Assembly: GCA_030583665.1 (NCBI GenBank) | Contig: CP129469.1 | Span: 3,339,043 to 3,403,042 of the forward strand | DNA from: Candidatus Jettenia sp. AMX2 | Lineage (GTDB): Bacteria > Planctomycetota > Brocadiia > Brocadiales > Brocadiaceae | Reading direction: 5' to 3' | DNA: 64,000 nucleotides | Shown here: positions 16,553 through 33,647 of the stretch, in pieces | How the letters are laid out: each line of letters starts with the position of its first letter | How positions within the stretch are numbered: the stretch's first letter is position 1 | The notes under the pieces: model-generated | The model's database searches: none | What the model saw: only the letters and a program-made list of their open reading frames with translations | What the model was told of the DNA's origin: nothing | Program-made: the position numbers and the translations under genes

Positions 16553-17218
16553 TTAGTACTTCGATACGTTAAGTTCTTCCATCTTTCCGGTAACCATAAA
16601 CACAATCCTTTCGGCAATGTTGGTTACCCTGTCTGCGATGCGTTCCAGATTGTGCGACACCCAGGTTAAATAGGTGGCTCCGTGGATTATTTTGGGATTC
16701 CCTATCATCAGGAACAGGAGTTCCCTGTAGATCTGATCGTGAAGGGCATCTACCTTGTCGTCTTCTTTGCAGATAAGCCTTGCCTCTTCTACATCCCTTT
16801 TTATGAAAGCCTTAAGGCAACGCTCCAGCATAGACAATCCAATATCCGCCATTCTGGGTATATCAATAAGGGGCTTTACCAGTGGCTCATTGCCGATCAA
16901 TAAGCTTATTTTGGCAATCCCTTCTGCGTAGTCTCCCATACGTTCCAAATCCGTTATAATACTGAGTATTGATGTCAATGTCCTCAGATCAATGGCCATC
17001 GGTTGTTGTGTCGCAATGAGGGAAATACATTTTTCTTCAATTTCAAAACGTTTTTTATTAATAAGGAGGTCATTTTTAATTACTTCGTGGGAGGCGGTTC
17101 TGTCTCTTTTCTGAAGTGCCTCCACAGAGAGTTTTATAGCATGTGCTACCATATCCCCCATCTTCAGTACCTCATTTTCCAGATTATTTAATTCCTTATG
17201 GTAAAGTTCCCTAGTCAT
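16553..17218 (-). CDS. phoU: Phosphate signalling protein PhoU
   Basis: 221 residues, all helical, with the two PhoU repeats, each holding an acidic metal-binding patch (DLERMGDYAEGI near 90-101 and HNLERIADRVTNIAE near 186-200). PhoU links Pst transport to the PhoR/PhoB-type kinase and limits phosphate uptake. It is the last gene of the leftward pst operon, 20 bp after pstB. No phoB/phoR pair is in this window. Confidence 0.95.
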   Translation of the reverse strand: MTRELYHKELNNLENEVLKMGDMVAHAIKLSVEALQKRDRTASHEVIKNDLLINKKRFEIEEKCISLIATQQPMAIDLRTLTSILSIITDLERMGDYAEGIAKISLLIGNEPLVKPLIDIPRMADIGLSMLERCLKAFIKRDVEEARLICKEDDKVDALHDQIYRELLFLMIGNPKIIHGATYLTWVSHNLERIADRVTNIAERIVFMVTGKMEELNVSKY

Positions 17219-17238: not shown

Positions 17239-18009
17239 TTAACCAAACCTGCCGGTAATATAGTCTTCAGTTTGTTTTTCAGAAGGGTTTGTAAAAATAG
17301 CGGTTGTTGTATTAAACTCGACAAGTTCTCCCAGCATGAAGAATCCGGTATGCTCTGATATCCTTGCTGCCTGTTGCATATTATGGGTTACGATGATAAC
17401 GGTATAATCTGTCTTCAGCTCAAGGAGCATGTCTTCTATCTTTGCGGTAGCGATGGGGTCGAGTGCGGAGCATGGCTCGTCGAGGAGGATAATCTCGGGT
17501 TCCATAGCGATTGCCCGTGCGATACAAATGCGCTGCTGCTGGCCACCCGAAAGGTCAAGGGCGCTCACATGAAGCCTGTCTTTCACTTCATCCCACAATG
17601 CTGCTTTCTTCAGTGCTTTTTCACACACTTCTGAAAGGGTGTTTTTGTTCCGGATGCCCTGTATACGAGGGCCATATATAACATTTTCAAAAATTGATTT
17701 TGGGAAGGGGTTGGGCTTCTGAAATACCATGCCAACCCTTCTGCGTAATTCGGTGACATCAATTCCCGGTGAATAGATATCCTGGTCATCAATTTTAACG
17801 GTTCCCTCTATTGATACGTCTTCGATAAGATCGTTCATGCGATTCAGGCATCGAATCAAGGTTGATTTTCCGCAACCGGAAGGTCCGATAAAGGAGGTTA
17901 TTTTATTTTTGGAAATGTCGAGATTGATATTTTTTAATGCCTTGGTCTTCCCGTAAAAAAGGTTCAGATCAATGATAGTTACAATTGGTTCAGGAACTTT
18001 TATCTTCAT
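17239..18009 (-). CDS. pstB: Phosphate ABC transporter ATP-binding protein PstB
   Basis: 256 residues, the usual length. Walker A is GPSGCGKST, followed by [12 protein letters not shown], which is specific to PstB. The signature motif is LSGGQQQR, Walker B IILLDEP with the CSALDPIAT loop, and the switch His is in [10 protein letters not shown]. It powers phosphate import with PstA and PstC. It is followed by phoU and preceded by pstA. Confidence 0.97.
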
Positions 18010-18033: not shown

Positions 18034-19674
18034 TTATAACGATGCGGCACGGTACCATTTTCTTAATTTATTCCGTATGAGTATAGCCGTAATATTCAGT
18101 AAAAGAATAATTGCCAGTAACACAAAGGTTGTGGTGTACACCATAGGAATAGCTGCTTCAACGTTGGGGGATTGAAAGCCGACGTCATAAATGTGAAAAC
18201 CCAGATGCATAAACTTCCTTTCGAGGTGAATGAAGGGAAACTTACTGTCTATAGGGAGTGATGGAGCCAGCTTTACTACTCCGGTGATCATTAACGGTGC
18301 AACTTCTCCGGCTGCCCGTGCAATTGCAAGGATTATACCGGTAAGAATACCAGGGGTTGCATGCGGGAGCAGTATTTTCCGGATCGTTTCAAATTTGGTG
18401 GCACCAAGGGCAAAGGACCCTTCCCGCAGGGATTTCGGGACAGCAGACAATCCTTCTTCTGTTGCTACAACGACAACCGGCACCGTTAACAGCGCCAGGG
18501 TGAGGGATGCCCAAAGAATACCACCCGTCCCGAAGGTCGGGGACGGTAACGTATCAGAAAAGAACAGCTCGTCAATACTGCCGCCAATGAGATAAACAAA
18601 GAAGCCGAGGCCAAAGATACCAAATACTATGGAAGGTACGCCGGCAAGGTTACTGACCGAGATGCGTACAATCCTGGCAAAAACAGTATCACCTGCATAT
18701 TCCTTCAAATAGACTGCGGTTAATACCCCTAGCGGAACAACCGCTATGCTCATAATGAATACCAGCATGACAGTGCCGAAAATAGCAGGAAATATACCGC
18801 CTTCTGTGTTGGCTTCCCTTGGTTCGCCTGACAGAAACTCCCAGAATTTTATCAGATAAAAACCAAATTTTGAAAGAGTTCCCATTTCATTTGGAGCGTA
18901 TGCACGGATTATTTGAAAAACAGGAACCGTTCTCTCCTCACCTTCGGCAAGCTGCACCACAATTTTTTCTTCCATTGCCTGTGAGTAAAGTTCGGTAAGT
19001 ATGCCTTCCTGTTCCCTGTAAGCTTTTTCGAGGTTTAACGTGCTGGCCTTTAAAGCCTCGATTTTTTTACGAATTCGTTCTGATGGTTCCTGCGATTTTA
19101 AACGTTTCAAGGCAATACGGTTTTTTTCCATCCGGTGATTTATATTACCGATTATTTTTTTTTCAATATGCCGTATTTCCCTGACGAGCGCATGGTTTTC
19201 TTTTAAGAGCGGGAGCAGGTCTTGTTGTGTGAGGGACACCATATCGTCATCATCTTCCTCCTCCTCTTCGTCATCATCATCATCATCGTCATCTCTTATC
19301 AAGCCCTTCAGAAAACCATACATGTTTCCCCACTCTCGCCTTTCAAATGCCAGGGCATTGCGGGGATATTCGAGGGAGATAATATCCGCATCTTCAATCC
19401 ATGTAAAATCAAGACCATAAACATCCCTGTTTCCAATCTTTAGTTTTGTCCGGAAAGCGTCTTCCTGATAGGGAACAGGCTCTCTCTTTACCACTTCTCC
19501 CAAGACAATGCTACCATCTTTAAGCGTGAATTGGGTAATAGGATACGGCCAGAAGACGCTGAGTCCGTTTATCATAATAAGCGCAACTAATCCGCCCATC
19601 ATCAGGAGTGTAATCGTTAGTGAACAGGCAGTCAGCCAGATATATGGGATTCCTGTTTTAAAAAAATGTTTCAT
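18034..19674 (-). CDS. pstA: Phosphate ABC transporter permease PstA, long form with acidic run
   Basis: 546 residues, almost twice the minimal PstA. After the first membrane helix (about 12-36) comes a soluble insertion of some 240 residues, with an unbroken run of 17 Asp/Glu (128-144) and a coiled coil (about 160-225). The permease domain then follows, with FGIFGLGFF, SLTLALLTVPVVVVAT and the EAA loop LREGSFALGATKFETIRKIL. Long PstA and PstC forms are known in other Gram-negative bacteria. The insertion would face the periplasm if the N-terminus is cytoplasmic. It starts inside the end of pstC (4-bp ATGA overlap). Confidence 0.92.
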   Translation of the reverse strand: MKHFFKTGIPYIWLTACSLTITLLMMGGLVALIMINGLSVFWPYPITQFTLKDGSIVLGEVVKREPVPYQEDAFRTKLKIGNRDVYGLDFTWIEDADIISLEYPRNALAFERREWGNMYGFLKGLIRDDDDDDDDEEEEEDDDDMVSLTQQDLLPLLKENHALVREIRHIEKKIIGNINHRMEKNRIALKRLKSQEPSERIRKKIEALKASTLNLEKAYREQEGILTELYSQAMEEKIVVQLAEGEERTVPVFQIIRAYAPNEMGTLSKFGFYLIKFWEFLSGEPREANTEGGIFPAIFGTVMLVFIMSIAVVPLGVLTAVYLKEYAGDTVFARIVRISVSNLAGVPSIVFGIFGLGFFVYLIGGSIDELFFSDTLPSPTFGTGGILWASLTLALLTVPVVVVATEEGLSAVPKSLREGSFALGATKFETIRKILLPHATPGILTGIILAIARAAGEVAPLMITGVVKLAPSLPIDSKFPFIHLERKFMHLGFHIYDVGFQSPNVEAAIPMVYTTTFVLLAIILLLNITAILIRNKLRKWYRAASL

Positions 19675-22037
19675 AGTTTGCTATATTTTTTCCTCATTCT
19701 CTGCCGTACCATTTCAGATGCAGTATTTACGATAAAGGTTGTTATGAAAAGAAGTAAGGCTGCAAAAAAGAGCACACGGTAAAGTGTGCCGCCAATTGGC
19801 GCTTCGGGGATTTCAACTGCGATATTTGCTGAAAGAGCCCTGAACCCGTTAAAGGGATTCCAGTCCATAATGGGGGTGTTTCCCGTTGCCATAAGTACAA
19901 TCATGGTCTCACCGACTGCCCTTCCGAAACCAATCATCACGGCTGAAAATATACCTGGGCTTGCCGTCGGAAGTACTACACGTACCGCCGTCTGCCAGGG
20001 AGTTGCTCCCAATGCAAGCGACGCCGAGCTAAGATTTGCCGGAACATTGCTCAAGGCATCTTCCGATATCGTAAAGATGACCGGGATGATTGCAAATCCC
20101 ATTGCAAATCCGACAATAAGGGCGTTTCTCTGGTCATAATGCAAGCCTAAAACCGATAAAAGCCAGTGCCGGTAATCACCCTGAAAGAGGATAGATTCAG
20201 AGATGGTGGTAAGCTGGATTGACACGTATACAGCTCCGATAAGAAATGGTATTAAAAAAAGGGCTTCTATACCATAACGATATTTACTTTGTATCCAGTC
20301 AGGCAGAAATCCCCAGGAAAACAGGGCAATGGCAGTAAAAAGCACGATGAAAAGGGGGGCAATGACTATGGCCGGAAAGATACTCTCAATAAGTGGTGCG
20401 AACCATAATGCTGCAAGAAAACCGAGGATAACACTGGGAAGTGCTGCCATGATTTCAATGGCAGGTTTGATAAATTTTATCCTCCGGTGAAGGAACTGTG
20501 ATGTGTAGAGCGCTGCCAGGATACCAATCGGCATAGCAATGACCAATGAGTAAAGTGTACCCTTTATGGTGCCAAAAATCAGGGGTACGAGGCTTAGCTT
20601 TGGCTCGTAATCCCCGGCCCCTCCGGTAGATTGCCAGATAAATTCCGGCTTTTCATAACCTTCATACCATATACGCCCAAACAATGTCTTCAGGGTAATC
20701 TCAGGATGGGGGTTTGATATGTTCCAGTGATACAAAGTATTATCCGTACAGGCCACCAGAATTCCATTTCCCCGCGGTGAGAATGCTATGGCGGTTGGTT
20801 CTGCCTGTGTACGCAGGCTGAGGATTGTTTGTCTGGAGGTGGTATGGCTGAGATGGATTGTCCCGTCGTATGCCATGGTTAAAAAGCTCTTGTTCCTTTT
20901 CGAGGGCACCACTGTCATTGCCTGCGCAGTATGCGGCTGAAAGGTGTGTATCTTTTTGAGAATGGTTTTCGCAGGGTTGTTTTTACGTACCTGCATCCAG
21001 GAACTTATTGCACCCTCCTGATCACATGCTATAAGCGTGATATCTCCCAACACAAAACCCAGCACGGTGATAGCTTTATCCGATATTTTTCGTATCTCGT
21101 GAACGAAAGGGTTTTTTTTGTCCCTGATATTGATATGGATTAATTTTCCCGTGGAAGTTCCGGCATAGAGGTTTTCCATAAACGAATCAATAGCCAGCGA
21201 TGTTATCTTAACCGTGTCTTCCGGTTCCGTTATACCGGAAGGAAAGGCGGACGATTCACGCATGGCATACGACGGAGATTGATTTACGAGATGAGTTAAA
21301 TCCTTCCTGAATTCTGTTTTTTCCCCTGTGCCAAAAAGGGTTCTTCTGACTTCCGTATGTTTTACTAATAATCTGTTATCGGTTGTGCTGGCAACCGTAA
21401 TTGTTGCCCTGTCGTCACTTTTCGACACAACATGTTGGATCTCCTGGCCTTTTTCATCGATTTTTAGTGTTTCACCTTTTGCTATTTGGGGAGTGATGAT
21501 TCTTCTCCCGTCTTCATAGGATTCTGAAAAAGTAATAAAGACTGTCATGATGCTTCCGTCATACATTCCGAGGACGAGACGATTCTGATCTTTGTATACA
21601 GAGGTTATTATGCTCTCCCGTACCAATTCCTCATCTGGCTCTTCGTGGGTATGGTTTGTTTCAGGAGAAAGACCAGCAGCAGGAACCGTGTGATTATTAC
21701 CGGGACTCTGGTTCACTTCAGAAGAAGTATCTGCCATGTTTGTAATATGGTATCTTTTAACGATTTTGTTATCTGATAAGGAGATAAACTCTATTCTTCC
21801 ATCCTGATAAACCGTATAGGCAGTTTCCTGGTATTCGTCTATATCAACGAAAACCACCTTGCCATGGGCAGAATAGCTCGCCACCTCTAATACTTTCGCG
21901 CTTTTAAAAAGCGGGTGCACCTCTGAGAGGATAAAGAAAAACAAGGCAAGTACGATAAAAATCGTAAACGAGCCGCCAATCGTGATAATGCAGCGGGCTG
22001 TTTTATCAGCGATTTTTCTTCTTTTTAAGGTTTCCAT
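19671..22037 (-). CDS. pstC: Phosphate ABC transporter permease PstC with beta-propeller-like insertion
   Basis: 788 residues. One membrane helix (about 17-42) is followed by a soluble domain of roughly 430 residues with repeated beta-blade-like stretches (KVVFVDIDEY, NRLVLGMYDGSIM, TMAYDGTIHLSHT, AFSPRGNGILVACTDNTLYHW), suggesting a WD40-like propeller. The PstC permease core follows, with the EAA loop SSASLALGATPWQTAVRVVLP. The long form parallels the long PstA encoded next; both insertions may dock with PstS. No clear ribosome site precedes the ATG, and the PHO-type promoter of porin 1 lies about 2 kb upstream. Confidence 0.9.
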   Translation of the reverse strand: METLKRRKIADKTARCIITIGGSFTIFIVLALFFFILSEVHPLFKSAKVLEVASYSAHGKVVFVDIDEYQETAYTVYQDGRIEFISLSDNKIVKRYHITNMADTSSEVNQSPGNNHTVPAAGLSPETNHTHEEPDEELVRESIITSVYKDQNRLVLGMYDGSIMTVFITFSESYEDGRRIITPQIAKGETLKIDEKGQEIQHVVSKSDDRATITVASTTDNRLLVKHTEVRRTLFGTGEKTEFRKDLTHLVNQSPSYAMRESSAFPSGITEPEDTVKITSLAIDSFMENLYAGTSTGKLIHINIRDKKNPFVHEIRKISDKAITVLGFVLGDITLIACDQEGAISSWMQVRKNNPAKTILKKIHTFQPHTAQAMTVVPSKRNKSFLTMAYDGTIHLSHTTSRQTILSLRTQAEPTAIAFSPRGNGILVACTDNTLYHWNISNPHPEITLKTLFGRIWYEGYEKPEFIWQSTGGAGDYEPKLSLVPLIFGTIKGTLYSLVIAMPIGILAALYTSQFLHRRIKFIKPAIEIMAALPSVILGFLAALWFAPLIESIFPAIVIAPLFIVLFTAIALFSWGFLPDWIQSKYRYGIEALFLIPFLIGAVYVSIQLTTISESILFQGDYRHWLLSVLGLHYDQRNALIVGFAMGFAIIPVIFTISEDALSNVPANLSSASLALGATPWQTAVRVVLPTASPGIFSAVMIGFGRAVGETMIVLMATGNTPIMDWNPFNGFRALSANIAVEIPEAPIGGTLYRVLFFAALLLFITTFIVNTASEMVRQRMRKKYSKL

Positions 22038-22391: not shown

Positions 22392-22454
22392 CAGGGGGCG
22401 AAGCATTCGCTGATGTTTAACTTGTATTCCGTGCTGCAAATGCTTCGCCCCCTG
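22392..22454. repeat. Long perfect inverted repeat
   Basis: Arms of 16 bp, CAGGGGGCGAAGCATT (22392-22407) and its exact complement (22439-22454), with a 31-base loop; one mismatch further in, the pairing resumes. No T-run follows on either strand, so it is not a standard terminator. It could act on transcript stability between porin 1 and pstC, or be a remnant of a small mobile element. Confidence 0.6.
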
Positions 22455-22569
22455 CAACGAATAGGGAATTCCTATGCGTTACATGCTATGTTTTCCAACA
22501 CCGTTTGTTATTGCCTGAAGATTTGCATGTGTTATTATAAAAGGAATAAAAAGGAGAAGCAATTCCTGA

Positions 22570-23904
22570 TTAAAAAATAATCTGGTATTGTATTCTGAAT
22601 ATATTTTCGTGTTTCGTCTGTTCTCCGGCATCTGTTACAAAATGACTAAAGTCTGACTGTATCTTTGAACGATGTTTGCGGAAGTAATAGTTTAGACCAA
22701 TGGTATATTCCCTGTGGAGATCCCTGGATGTATCCTTGTCGGGATCAAGCAGAGAATAACGTGCGGCAAGCTCCAGTTTTTTTGGCAACACAAAGTATCC
22801 AAGCTGGGTAAAGAACCCTTCGGATTTTATAGAACCACCACCGTCATGGTCGTGTGACATTATATAATATTCATTCTCCCATGCAATTCCTTTATATCTG
22901 AGACCAAAATCAAAGACACCTGCAGTGCCAGCCTCCTCGCTAGGTTTATCCCGCAGTTTTGGATTAAAAACAACAGCAGCCCCCATGGTTGCCTTTAAGG
23001 TCCCGGAATGTGCAAGATCGGTGTCACTATAATAATCAAATTTTCCAAACGGGTTATATCTTACACTAAGCACATACATGAGTTTGTTATCAATATTGAC
23101 ATTTGCAGTTTCACCGGCTCCGGTAAACACCGCAGCATGATATTCCACATGGCCGTTGAAAGGCAGTCCGTAGATATTGAGTCCATAATCCCTGTCCTGA
23201 TCGAAGAATTCACTGGCGATTGCTCTATCTATAAGTAGGAGCTTGGAAGATGATGTGACCCTATGCCTATTAAACGGTACTATAAAATATCCAATCTTGG
23301 CATTTAATTCCTTCTGTGGAGTCCAGTACACATAAAAATCTCTCAGATTAACGTCTCTTGCTCTGTCAGCATCTAATGAAACATAATAATGTAAAAGTTT
23401 GCCATAAATATTCCCCCCGAAGTAAACCCTTGCCCGGCGAACTTCGAGAGTGCTTGTATCTTTTTCTCTATCTCTGTCCCGGAATGTATATTGGAATTGT
23501 AATCTGGCTCCAAAATGTAACGAGTATTTGTTATCGGCGGTTTTAAGACTTAATGAATATTTATCATCGTCAGGGGTATAGGCGAGTGTAACGGCTGATG
23601 GATCGGGGTCCTTTTTTTCCCGTGCTTCGTTTGAAGAGAGATAGCTTTCCACTTCCTGTTTAACTTCTTCCTTTACAGGCAGGGAGTCTATACGTTTTTT
23701 TAAGGCCTCTATTTGTGCCTGTTGCCGTAGCATGGACTCTTCCATTTGCTTCAACTGCCGTTTTAAATCTTCTATTTCATTTTCAGACATTTCTTCTGTA
23801 TTCATGGCCTCCCGGGCAAATACATTGGGTAATATGCTATTTATGTATAGGTTGTAAAAGAGGACCGCAAGCAACGAGATATACCCGCACCGCAATGTGT
23901 TCAT
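22570..23904 (-). CDS. OprO/OprP-like phosphate-selective porin (copy 1)
   Basis: 444 residues. Signal peptide (about 1-32), then a coiled coil (about 37-75, NEIEDLKRQLKQMEESMLRQ) which in OprP-type porins lies at the periplasmic end, then a beta-barrel starting SLHFGARLQFQYTFRD and ending with the outer-membrane signature RIQYQIIF. A DFYVYWTPQKELNAKIGYF stretch matches the Porin_O_P family. In this context, next to pstS and pstC and behind a PHO-like promoter, phosphate passage is the likely role. It is a paralogue of the gene at 25949. Confidence 0.88.
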   Translation of the reverse strand: MNTLRCGYISLLAVLFYNLYINSILPNVFAREAMNTEEMSENEIEDLKRQLKQMEESMLRQQAQIEALKKRIDSLPVKEEVKQEVESYLSSNEAREKKDPDPSAVTLAYTPDDDKYSLSLKTADNKYSLHFGARLQFQYTFRDRDREKDTSTLEVRRARVYFGGNIYGKLLHYYVSLDADRARDVNLRDFYVYWTPQKELNAKIGYFIVPFNRHRVTSSSKLLLIDRAIASEFFDQDRDYGLNIYGLPFNGHVEYHAAVFTGAGETANVNIDNKLMYVLSVRYNPFGKFDYYSDTDLAHSGTLKATMGAAVVFNPKLRDKPSEEAGTAGVFDFGLRYKGIAWENEYYIMSHDHDGGGSIKSEGFFTQLGYFVLPKKLELAARYSLLDPDKDTSRDLHREYTIGLNYYFRKHRSKIQSDFSHFVTDAGEQTKHENIFRIQYQIIF

Positions 23905-24031
23905 GTTTACCTTCCTTCCCTCCCTTCTTCCTTTCTTTCGTACTGGAAATACACCACCATTAAAATTAACATGATATTTTATGAAATCTTTGGCAACTGC
24001 ATAAGGTTGCCAACCTTTCTTTTGTGTACGA

Positions 24032-24085
24032 ATTATAAAACCTGAATATTAGGGGAGTGTTAAGAAATTGTTAATTTTGTGTTAA
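24032..24085 (-). promoter_or_regulatory. PHO-box-like promoter of porin copy 1
   Basis: On the minus strand three TTAACA hexamers stand exactly 11 bp apart (complement at 24080-24085, 24069-24074, 24058-24063), followed after 20 bases by TATAAT (complement 24032-24037). This is the layout of B. subtilis PhoP boxes (TTAACA-type repeats, 11-bp pitch). An almost identical promoter stands before porin copy 2. Confidence 0.75.
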
Positions 24086-24169
24086 ATTAAAAATATGTTC
24101 GTACACTTAATCCCCTTTTCCAGGAAGAACATGGTGTTGCTTACAACTGCATGGATAAATTCCCCTTAA

Positions 24170-24460
24170 TAACTGGGACAGGGGTTTGTTATAGTACTCA
24201 AAGTATTAAACCAAACATATTTTCAATCGACGGGAAAACTAACCCGCCGGTCATTAGAGATTGCTTCGCTTACACTCGCAACGACCGTGTACTTGTCATT
24301 GCGAGGGTCTTTTCCGAAGCAATCCCACCACTGTACAACCGTCATTGTGAAGGCAAAGCCTGAGGCAATCCCTCCCCCATGAGATTGCTTCGTCACTTCG
24401 TTACTCGCAATGACCGAAATAGTCTTTTTTGGTGGGCAGTGCCCACCCTACACTCTAATC
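24170..24460. repeat. Composite interspersed repeat, third copy
   Basis: Shares long words with 13190-13485 and 14395-14545 (TTCAATCGACGGGAAAACTA-like, CATTGCGAGGGTCTTTTCC, GAAGCAATC, AGATTGCTTCGTC) and ends in a GGTGGGCAGTGCCCACC palindrome. Noncoding. Confidence 0.7.
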
Positions 24461-24774: not shown

Positions 24775-25797
24775 TTAATGTGTAATTTTCTTAAGTTCCT
24801 CTGCAACAACTGATGCCGGCAAAGGCAAGTAGCCGTCTTTCAGGACGATTTCCTGACCTTCAGCGCTCAGGATAAAGGTAATGAATTCCCTTACCAGGGG
24901 ATCAAGGGGCTGGCCGGGGTTTTTGTTAATATAAATATAAAGAAACCTTGACAGGGGATAAGAACCATCCAGAACATTTTCCATATTTGCCTCGTAATGG
25001 GGTTCTCCTTCTTTAAATGCAAGAGGCACTGTGCGTACACCTGATGTTATATATCCGATGCCGCTGTATCCCATACCGTAGCGGTCTTCTGTCACACCCT
25101 GCACAACAGAGGCTGATCCTGGCTGTTCTTTGACAATATTTTTGAAATCTCCCTTGTAAAGTGCCTCTTCCTTAAAAAATCCATACGTGCCTGATGCAGA
25201 GTTACGGCCGTAGAGACTTACCGGTCTTGGCGCCCATCTTCCTGTCAGTCCAAGTTGTCCCCATGTTCTGATATCTTCTTTATAGCTACCTCTTCTGGTA
25301 CTTGAGAAGACGGCGTCAACCTGGGGCAGACTCATGCCCTTTAAAGGATTGTCTTTGTGTACATATATTGCAAGGGCATCCAATGCTACTTTTATTTCCG
25401 ATGGTTTGTAACCGTATCTTTTTTCAAAAGCATCTATTTCTGTGGGTTTCATTGCCCTGCTCATGGGGCCTATTTGTGATGTCCCCGATATCAATGCAGG
25501 CGGGGCAGTGGAAGAACCTTTGCCTTCGATTTGTATCTTTACATTCGGATATGCCCTGTTAAACCCCTCTGCCCAGTAAGTCATAAGATTATTGAGCGTA
25601 TCTGAACCGATACTGTTCAGATTCCCCGATACCCCTTCAACTCTGATGTAAGGTTTCATTGCTGTTTCTGCATGCAATGCTGCGGCATGTAGAAATACTC
25701 CCATTGGTATACTGAGATAAAGTATTGTCAAAAATGATCTTAGATATTTTTCCACAGATGTTTTCTCCTTATATTTGGTTTCCGGGATTCCTTCCAT
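24775..25797 (-). CDS. pstS: Phosphate ABC transporter substrate-binding protein PstS
   Basis: 340 residues. A signal peptide lies at about 20-45 (FLTILYLSIPMGVFLHAAAL). The mature start has the PstS pattern VSGNLNSIGSDTLNNLMTYW, followed by GKGSSTAPPALISGTSQIGPMSR, where Ser, Thr and Gly residues bind phosphate, then GRNSASGTYGFF, which carries the second binding loop. It ends in VLKDGYLPLP. It binds phosphate in the periplasm for PstABC. It follows porin 2 by 150 bp and so probably shares the PHO-like promoter at 27381. Confidence 0.95.
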   Translation of the reverse strand: MEGIPETKYKEKTSVEKYLRSFLTILYLSIPMGVFLHAAALHAETAMKPYIRVEGVSGNLNSIGSDTLNNLMTYWAEGFNRAYPNVKIQIEGKGSSTAPPALISGTSQIGPMSRAMKPTEIDAFEKRYGYKPSEIKVALDALAIYVHKDNPLKGMSLPQVDAVFSSTRRGSYKEDIRTWGQLGLTGRWAPRPVSLYGRNSASGTYGFFKEEALYKGDFKNIVKEQPGSASVVQGVTEDRYGMGYSGIGYITSGVRTVPLAFKEGEPHYEANMENVLDGSYPLSRFLYIYINKNPGQPLDPLVREFITFILSAEGQEIVLKDGYLPLPASVVAEELKKITH

Positions 25798-27295: not shown

Positions 27296-27380
27296 CCATC
27301 CTTTCTTGTTTTCAAAATTGCACTACGGGTAGCATAATAATATTCCTGTGTACGAGGCTAAGATGCCTTTTACGTAGCGA

Positions 27381-27434
27381 ATTATAAAACCTGAATATTA
27401 GGGGAGTGTTAAGAAATTGTTAATTTTGTGTTAA
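27381..27434 (-). promoter_or_regulatory. PHO-box-like promoter of porin copy 2 and pstS
   Basis: Three TTAACA hexamers on the minus strand at 11-bp pitch (complement 27429-27434, 27418-27423, 27407-27412), 20 bases, then TATAAT (complement 27381-27386). About 50 bases are nearly identical to the promoter at 24032-24085, while flanking sequence differs, which supports selection on the site or a recent duplication. Confidence 0.75.
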
Positions 27435-27734
27435 CTTAAAAATAGTTTTATGTATGAATTTCTGCAGTGGTTTCCGGTATTTCTTATGACGGGATGGTGT
27501 TTTTTTGAACAATTATGCATGTTCTGTATGGCGTAGTAACAATAAATGATTTTCATTAGAAGGCAGGAAGGGCATGCAGTGAACGCCTGACACGAATCTT
27601 CTGAATTGCTGGAGAAATATAGGGTAAGGCTTGCGTCTTGCAATCGAAACCGGGGTGCTTTGTTTGCCTCGTTCAGTATCCATTTTTAAAGGGAGACATT
27701 GGATGTATGAAGTCTTTTTTGCTGGCTTGAAACA

Positions 27735-32642: not shown

Positions 32643-33647
32643 ATGAGGTTTATTATGATGGCAATAATTGTTCCCTTCCTTTTCATGGAGGTATGTTTTG
32701 CGAAGCAAGTGATTGTTTATACCTCGGTGGATAGAGAGTTCTCTGAACCGGTACTTAAACAATTTGAGGAAGGTACCGGGATAAAGGTACGGGCAGTTTA
32801 TGACACGGAAGAGACAAAGGGTACAGGCCTGGTTAACAGGCTGATTGCGGAAAAGGATAAGCCCCGGGCCGATGTTTTCTGGTGTGGCGATCCGATACGG
32901 CCTGCTTTACTTGAGACAAAAGGCATAACAGAGCCGTATGTCTCAGGTGCCGCTGCTGATATTCCGGAAAAATACAAGTGTAAGGAGGGAAATTGGACAG
33001 GATTTTCTGCCCGTGTCCGGGTCATTCTTTATAATACAAACCTGGTAAATCTTGATGAAAGGCCTTTATCCCTGTTTGACCTTGCGAAACCAAAATGGAA
33101 AGATCAGGTGGCGATTGCAAACCCGCTCTTTGGCTCCACCGCAGCGCACATGGCTGTCCTGTTTGACACATTAGGCGATGAGGATGCTGTGAAGTTTCTC
33201 TTTGATTTAAAAACAAACAGGGTAAGGATTGTTTCATCAAATAGTGAGGTAAGAAGGCTTGTTGTAGACGGAGAGGTTATGGTAGGCATTACTGATACCG
33301 ATGAGGCTGAGATGGCTATTCAGGAAAGAAACCCGGTAAAAAAGGTATTTCCGGATCAGGGGGATAAAGATATAGGCACCTTCATTATGCCAAACGTGGT
33401 TTGCCTTATCAAGGGCGGTCCGCATCCGGATAGCGGGAAAAAATTGATTGATTATCTCCTGAGTAAGGAGGTTGAGAGACAGCTGGCATTTGCATCCTGT
33501 TACCAGATACCGCTCAGGCATGATGTCAGAAGGCCTGCTGATGTTTATATGATTGATGCAATAAAAGGTATGGATGTCGATTACCATAAAGCGGCGAAGA
33601 AGATGGAGGAGATCGAAGAGTTTCTCAAGGATTGGGCAGGAGGATAA
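32643..33647 (+). CDS. Iron-type ABC transporter substrate-binding protein
   Basis: 334 residues with a signal peptide (about 1-20, ending EVCFA). The N-terminus VIVYTSVDREFSEPVLKQFE and the following RLIAEKDKPRADVFWCGD match family 1 solute-binding proteins of the FutA/SfuA ferric-ion group. No permease or ATPase gene is adjacent, so it is an orphan here. Ferric iron is a likely ligand, but anions or other metals are possible. AAAGGATGGTGGG stands just before the ATG. Confidence 0.8.
   Translation: MRFIMMAIIVPFLFMEVCFAKQVIVYTSVDREFSEPVLKQFEEGTGIKVRAVYDTEETKGTGLVNRLIAEKDKPRADVFWCGDPIRPALLETKGITEPYVSGAAADIPEKYKCKEGNWTGFSARVRVILYNTNLVNLDERPLSLFDLAKPKWKDQVAIANPLFGSTAAHMAVLFDTLGDEDAVKFLFDLKTNRVRIVSSNSEVRRLVVDGEVMVGITDTDEAEMAIQERNPVKKVFPDQGDKDIGTFIMPNVVCLIKGGPHPDSGKKLIDYLLSKEVERQLAFASCYQIPLRHDVRRPADVYMIDAIKGMDVDYHKAAKKMEEIEEFLKDWAGG

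What the first reader, a model, noticed from the sequence alone, without database searches (positions are those of the whole stretch)
24032..24085. Triple TTAACA box at exact 11-bp pitch before porin 1
Three identical hexamers one helical turn apart, then TATAAT. The layout equals the B. subtilis PhoP box, yet this is a Gram-negative, planctomycete-like genome next to pst genes, where the PHO box is undescribed as far as I know.
Basis: partly seen in the sequence, partly recalled or inferred. Interest (0 to 1): 0.6.

Follow-up and report, generated by a model that had tools for sequence, protein, structure and literature searches.

The report
Anammox phosphate-starvation promoter (Pho box)
Upstream of two phosphate-uptake genes, this anammox bacterium carries a phosphate-starvation switch made of four evenly spaced copies of a short DNA word; the same switch is found in all 33 related genomes tested, mostly before phosphate genes, so it marks a phosphate regulon for which no earlier description in this group was found.

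Summary
At 24032-24085 (minus strand) there are four, not three, TTAAYA-type boxes at exact 11-bp pitch, then nine bases, then TATAAT. A near-identical copy (66/67 bp) precedes the second porin at 27381-27434. The two copies sit before the only two Porin_O_P genes of the genome, in the pstS / pstC-pstA-pstB-phoU cluster.

A genome-wide scan gives only three perfect triples: these two and one before an ACR3 arsenite exporter. A profile trained on other genomes recovers all three and finds sites in 33/33 family genomes; about half have a porin, pst, phoU, phoB, psiE, phoX or ACR3 gene first downstream. In held-out families of the same order, 20 of 24 sites precede PstS, porin, PhoU-like or PhoR-like genes. 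The -10 hexamer, not used to select sites, lies exactly 9 nt after box 4 in 48/49 sites. PhoB is the only OmpR-type winged-helix protein in the genome.

It is a PhoB-type Pho promoter: a new member of a known kind. TTAAC-type boxes at 11-bp pitch are already known from cyanobacteria, so the Gram-negative setting is not the surprise. I found no earlier Pho-box description for anammox bacteria. Binding and phosphate response are untested.

The parts
24080..24085 (-). Box 1, TTAACA (promoter of porin 1)
   Evidence: family alignment
24069..24074 (-). Box 2, TTAACA
24058..24063 (-). Box 3, TTAACA
24047..24052 (-). Box 4, CTAATA (family consensus TTAAYA), at the place of a -35 element
   Evidence: perfect TTAAYA in 44 of 49 family sites
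24032..24037 (-). -10 hexamer TATAAT, 9 nt after box 4
   Evidence: at this offset 48/49 sites have at least 4/6 TATAAT, no other offset tested exceeds 17
27378..27444 (-). Second copy of the promoter (boxes 27429-27434, 27418-27423, 27407-27412, 27396-27401; -10 27381-27386), 66/67 identical to 24029-24095
22570..23904 (-). Porin 1, Porin_O_P (PF07396), first gene after the promoter
   Evidence: 1.1e-16; one of only two in the genome
25949..27295 (-). Porin 2, Porin_O_P, 73% identical to porin 1, first gene after the second promoter copy
24775..25797 (-). pstS, phosphate-binding protein, next gene after porin 2
   Evidence: TIGR02136, 257.5 bits against cut-off 206.6
19671..22037 (-). pstC permease (788 aa), after porin 1 with a 532-bp gap
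   Evidence: TIGR02138, 194.4 bits, just under cut-off 196.45
18034..19674 (-). pstA permease
   Evidence: TIGR00974, 255.6 bits over 193.45
17239..18009 (-). pstB ATPase
   Evidence: TIGR00972, 411.2 bits over 343.2
16553..17218 (-). phoU
   Evidence: TIGR02135, 208.3 bits over 130.25

Best explanation
The element is a Pho-box promoter: the binding site of the genome's PhoB-type response regulator fused to a sigma-70-type -10. Under phosphate starvation the PhoR/PnpS-like kinase would phosphorylate PhoB; PhoB subunits would bind head to tail on the four 11-bp repeats along one face of the helix, with the last repeat in place of a -35 element, and recruit RNA polymerase to the TATAAT 9 nt downstream. 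This would switch on porin 2-pstS and porin 1 (and probably pstCAB-phoU), bringing phosphate across the outer and then the inner membrane. A third copy would co-induce the arsenite exporter ACR3, plausibly because arsenate enters through the same uptake route. Shown here: the sites, their fixed geometry, their conservation, their gene neighbours, and that PhoB is the only OmpR-type winged-helix regulator in the genome. Inferred: binding by PhoB, activation rather than repression, the phosphate signal and the operon read-through.
For: Geometry: 49 family sites line up without gaps as [TTAACA-N5]x3-TTAAYA-N9-TATAAT, with the -10 at the fixed offset in 48/49. Conservation: matches with up to 1 mismatch in 26/33 family genomes against 2 reversed-control matches; 33/33 with the profile. 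Own genome: a profile trained without it finds the two porin sites and the ACR3 site at 40.7-48.7 bits; one weaker site at 26.3; noise from 15.5. Function of neighbours: of 96 distinct sites, the first gene is a porin in 24, PstB in 12, PstC in 4, ACR3 in 4, PsiE cluster in 4, PhoX cluster in 2, PhoB in 1, PhoU in 1. Held-out families f2, f3, f94: 20 of 24 sites before PstS (9), porin (7), PhoU_div (2) or a PhoR-like kinase (2). Regulator: one Trans_reg_C gene in the genome, PhoB, with PhoR next to it; E. coli PhoB base-contact residues T194, V197 and R219 are kept and R201 is Ser (residues from PMC3264566).
Against: No binding, footprint or expression data. PhoB scores 248.8 bits, below the curated TIGR02154 cut-off of 296.2, though it is the best-scoring family. 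Nearly half of the family sites precede genes without a clear phosphate role (cNMP-binding, CheW, EAL/GGDEF, HMA_2 and unknowns). Four draft genomes that hold sites show no Trans_reg_C hit; none of them is both at least 90% complete and at most 5% contaminated. A 532-bp gap with a strong hairpin separates porin 1 from pstC, so control of pstCAB-phoU by this promoter is uncertain. phoB in this genome has no box of its own.
Confidence: 0.93

Rival explanations
1. The repeats bind a different OmpR-family regulator (for example a WalR/YycF-like one), and the position next to pst genes is incidental.
For: WalR/YycF-type regulators also read direct repeats at 11-bp pitch (own knowledge), and the kinase gives 414.5 bits to WalK.
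Against: The genome has a single Trans_reg_C gene, and its best family is PhoB at 248.8 bits against 195.1 for YycF; the kinase passes the PnpS cut-off (424.9 over 400) but not WalK's 725. Downstream genes are phosphate genes across several families.
Confidence: 0.04
2. The element is a repressor site: PhoB or another protein bound at boxes 1-4 blocks the promoter under phosphate-rich conditions.
For: Sequence alone does not give the sign of regulation.
Against: Box 4 stands where a -35 would be, no TTGACA-like -35 is conserved, and a fixed short distance from the box to the -10 is the layout of activated pho promoters (E. coli: box 10 bp upstream of the -10, PMC1906773).
Confidence: 0.03
3. 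Chance AT-rich repeats or a copied mobile repeat without function.
For: The two copies in the window are 66/67 identical, as a recent duplication or gene conversion would leave.
Against: Shuffle and reversed-pattern controls; conservation of sequence and geometry in 33/33 family genomes with diverged flanks; gene specificity.
Confidence: 0.003

Closest known systems
Cyanobacterial SphR (PhoB) Pho box, CTTAACCT
   Same: TTAAC core, at least three tandem copies, 8 bp plus 3-bp linker = 11-bp pitch, before pst and phoA genes of a Gram-negative phylum (PMC1906773).
   Different: Here the core is TTAACA/TTAATA, four copies, with a fixed N9-TATAAT; found in Planctomycetota, most often before Porin_O_P genes.
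Bacillus subtilis PhoP box (TTAACA-like, 11-bp direct repeats)
   Same: Hexamer and pitch as far as I recall them; the kinase here passes the PnpS cut-off, a Gram-positive type.
   Different: The B. subtilis consensus is recalled from memory, not tested here; targets here include outer-membrane porins, which Bacillus lacks.
Escherichia coli PhoB box (CTGTCAT, two 11-nt repeats)
   Same: 11-nt direct-repeat units, placed just upstream of the -10 (PMC4415409, PMC1906773); PhoB 42% identical.
   Different: Different hexamer (TTAACA, not TGTCA) and four repeats instead of two; base-contact residue R201 is Ser in this PhoB.

Membership tests
PhoB-type Pho box | Direct repeats in 11-nt units, at least two | tested here: met
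   Four units at exact 11-bp pitch, conserved in 49 sites
PhoB-type Pho box | Position just upstream of a sigma-70-type -10, replacing the -35 | tested here: met
   N9 then a TATAAT-like hexamer in 48/49 sites
PhoB-type Pho box | Enrichment before phosphate-uptake and pho regulatory genes | tested here: met
   About 50 of 96 family sites and 20 of 24 held-out sites
PhoB-type Pho box | Cognate PhoB/PhoR pair in the genome | tested here: met
   Adjacent phoB-phoR; PhoB is the only Trans_reg_C gene
PhoB-type Pho box | Bound by phosphorylated PhoB | not testable with these tools
   Needs footprint or EMSA
PhoB-type Pho box | Genes induced by phosphate limitation | not testable with these tools
   No expression data found for anammox bacteria
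PhoB equivalog TIGR02154 | Score over curated cut-off 296.2 bits | tested here: not met
   248.8 bits; still the best-scoring family. The regulator is called PhoB-type, not an equivalog by this rule
PnpS/PhoR phosphate sensor kinase | Score over curated cut-off | tested here: met
   NF046044 PnpS 424.9 bits over 400; TIGR02966 PhoR 320.9, under 334.2
WalR/YycF box | WalK/WalR pair over curated cut-offs in the genome | tested here: not met
   Kinase 414.5 against 725 for WalK; regulator 195.1 against 340 for YycF

The most novel reading that the evidence does not exclude
Anammox bacteria and the rest of their order share an old four-box TTAACA Pho promoter that controls an unusual regulon: outer-membrane phosphate porins and pst genes together with the ACR3 arsenite exporter, and in several genomes cyclic-nucleotide-binding, chemotaxis (CheW) and c-di-GMP (EAL/GGDEF) genes, so that phosphate limitation would also drive arsenic defence and a change of lifestyle.
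Probability: 0.5. Interest if true: 0.55.

Novelty: new member of a known kind. Interest (0 to 1): 0.48.

Why it matters
Anammox bacteria lack routine genetics (own knowledge), and no phosphate regulon was found described for them. A sharply defined promoter with fixed geometry lets their phosphate-starvation genes be read from any genome or metagenome, predicts members (ACR3, PsiE, PhoX-like, signalling genes), and gives direct tests (metatranscriptomes under phosphate limitation, in vitro binding). It could also serve as a marker of phosphate stress in wastewater communities.

Tried and rejected
Chance origin: rejected by shuffles, reversed-pattern controls and cross-genome conservation. Phylum-wide motif: with up to 1 mismatch it is rare outside the family (12 of 15 sampled family genomes match against 7 of 279 others), although three of those seven precede phosphate genes (PstS-like in L129, PHO4 in L097, and L102, judged a Na/Pi cotransporter by eye only). 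A box directly before pstS, pstC or phoB in this genome: none found. Literature searches for the B. subtilis consensus in the open library returned nothing usable. The simple promoter scan picked box 2 as a '-35' with an off-register second hexamer and was not informative.

Full report
Observation. The minus strand of 24029-24095 reads TATTTTTAAT-TTAACA-CAAAA-TTAACA-ATTTC-TTAACA-CTCCC-CTAATA-TTCAGGTTT-TATAAT-TCG. There are three perfect hexamers at 11-bp pitch, as reported, plus a fourth box CTAATA in register, then 9 nt and TATAAT. The same element, 66 of 67 bases identical, lies at 27378-27444, before a second porin; the flanks differ. In window shuffles the pattern with up to 3 mismatches averages 0.15 matches against 4 observed.

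Surroundings. Both copies point at Porin_O_P genes (PF07396), the only two in the genome. Gene order on the minus strand is promoter copy 2, porin 2, pstS, promoter copy 1, porin 1, pstC, pstA, pstB, phoU. So the two promoters stand at the head of two likely transcription units that together hold the whole Pst-PhoU-porin set. The porin 1-pstC gap of 532 bp holds a strong hairpin, so read-through is not certain. In the window a profile of the element scores 59.7 and 57.9 at these places and below 5 everywhere else.

Genome. The window lies in a 3.46-Mb single-contig genome. Only three perfect triples exist: the two porin sites and one at C1:3284947 before a protein that passes the ACR3 arsenite-efflux cut-off. 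A sequence-only profile trained on 42 sites of other genomes recovers exactly these three at 40.7-48.7 bits; a fourth, degenerate site scores 26.3, and the next is 15.5.

Relatives. The family appears to be that of Candidatus Brocadia, Kuenenia and Loosdrechtia, from the named records that carry the closest porins; the same-genus genome G022 is Candidatus Loosdrechtia aerotolerans by sequence match of its contig to L079. With up to 1 mismatch 26/33 family genomes match, with 2 control matches in all. With the profile all 33 match; most of these genomes supplied training sites, so the held-out test below is the fairer one. Aligned sites show four boxes, and a TATAAT-like hexamer (at least 4 of 6) exactly 9 nt after box 4 in 48 of 49; no other offset tested exceeds 17. 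The -10 was not used in choosing the sites, so this is independent evidence of a promoter.

Genes downstream. Among 96 distinct family sites the first gene is a porin (24), PstB (12), PstC (4), ACR3 (4; those of three other loci are 79-83% identical to the window genome's copy), a PsiE-like cluster (4), a PhoX-like cluster (2), PhoB (1) or PhoU (1); other recurrent clusters are cNMP-binding (8), HMA_2 (5), EAL/GGDEF (5) and CheW (4) (these clusters are named from one representative each). As a held-out test I took 20 regions from other families of the order, found by the profile and not used in training. Of 24 sites there, 9 precede PstS, 7 a porin, 2 a PhoU_div protein and 2 a PhoR-like kinase (some by BLAST similarity only).

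Regulator. The genome has one OmpR-type winged-helix gene (PF00486); its two hits are the same sequence in overlapping contig ends. It is PhoB-like (best family TIGR02154, 248.8 bits, below the cut-off of 296.2) and is followed at once by a kinase that passes the PnpS cut-off. Against E. coli PhoB (42% identity), base-contact residues T194, V197 and R219 are kept and R201 is Ser; the list of contacts is from PMC3264566. A changed contact fits a changed hexamer, but this is inference.

Mechanism. The layout (head-to-tail repeats one helical turn apart, last repeat in place of the -35, fixed distance to the -10) is that of promoters activated by PhoB. Activation under phosphate starvation is therefore the most likely mode. 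Binding, sign and signal are inferred.

Comparison. Pho boxes of 11-nt direct repeats are general (PMC4415409). TTAAC-type boxes with the same pitch are described for cyanobacteria (PMC1906773), so a Gram-negative genome with this layout is not unprecedented. For anammox bacteria or planctomycetes I found no description in an open-licence library, which does not prove absence. Links between arsenic genes and PhoB are known in proteobacteria (PMC3834237), so ACR3 in a Pho regulon is plausible and not new in kind.

Verdict. A genuine PhoB-type Pho promoter, present throughout the family of anammox bacteria and in much of its order; a new member of a known kind, with a clear predicted regulon.

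Noticed in passing
window 19671-22037 and 18034-19674 (-): PstC is 788 aa with beta-propeller (WD40-like) matches around residues 258-457, and PstA is 546 aa with about 260 extra N-terminal residues; both are far longer than usual Pst permeases.
   Followed up: no
L095 1-11034 and L096 2276-13309 (ends of G000:C1): The ends of the genome contig are identical over at least 11 kb, so the assembly has an untrimmed circular overlap; phoB appears twice only for this reason.
   Followed up: yes
L198 5757-5821 (G000:C1:3189763, -): A fourth, degenerate Pho-like site (26.3 bits) with no clear gene downstream; it is divergent from a 646-aa symporter-like ORF. Possibly a relic.
   Followed up: partly
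G024:C1:285267-349811 (L178-L180): Eight Pho sites within 65 kb, before genes including a porin, cNMP-binding, HMA_2 and PhoX-like proteins: a Pho gene cluster.
   Followed up: partly
L241, L243, L246, L248-L250, L252-L254, L257: In one sister family box 1 is mostly TTAACC and box 3 TTTATA, a lineage variant of the element.
   Followed up: no
window 22395-22455 (-), approximate: Strong hairpin GGGGGCGAAGCATT...AATGCTTCGCCCCC between porin 1 and pstC, without a T tract.
   Followed up: no
window 24240-24420: Short dispersed repeats of the type CTCGCAATGAC / GATTGCTTCG between the porin 1 promoter and pstS.
   Followed up: no
window 32643-33647 (+): Binding protein similar to 2-aminoethylphosphonate PhnS (130.6 bits, below cut-off), a possible phosphorus gene without a Pho site.
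   Followed up: no
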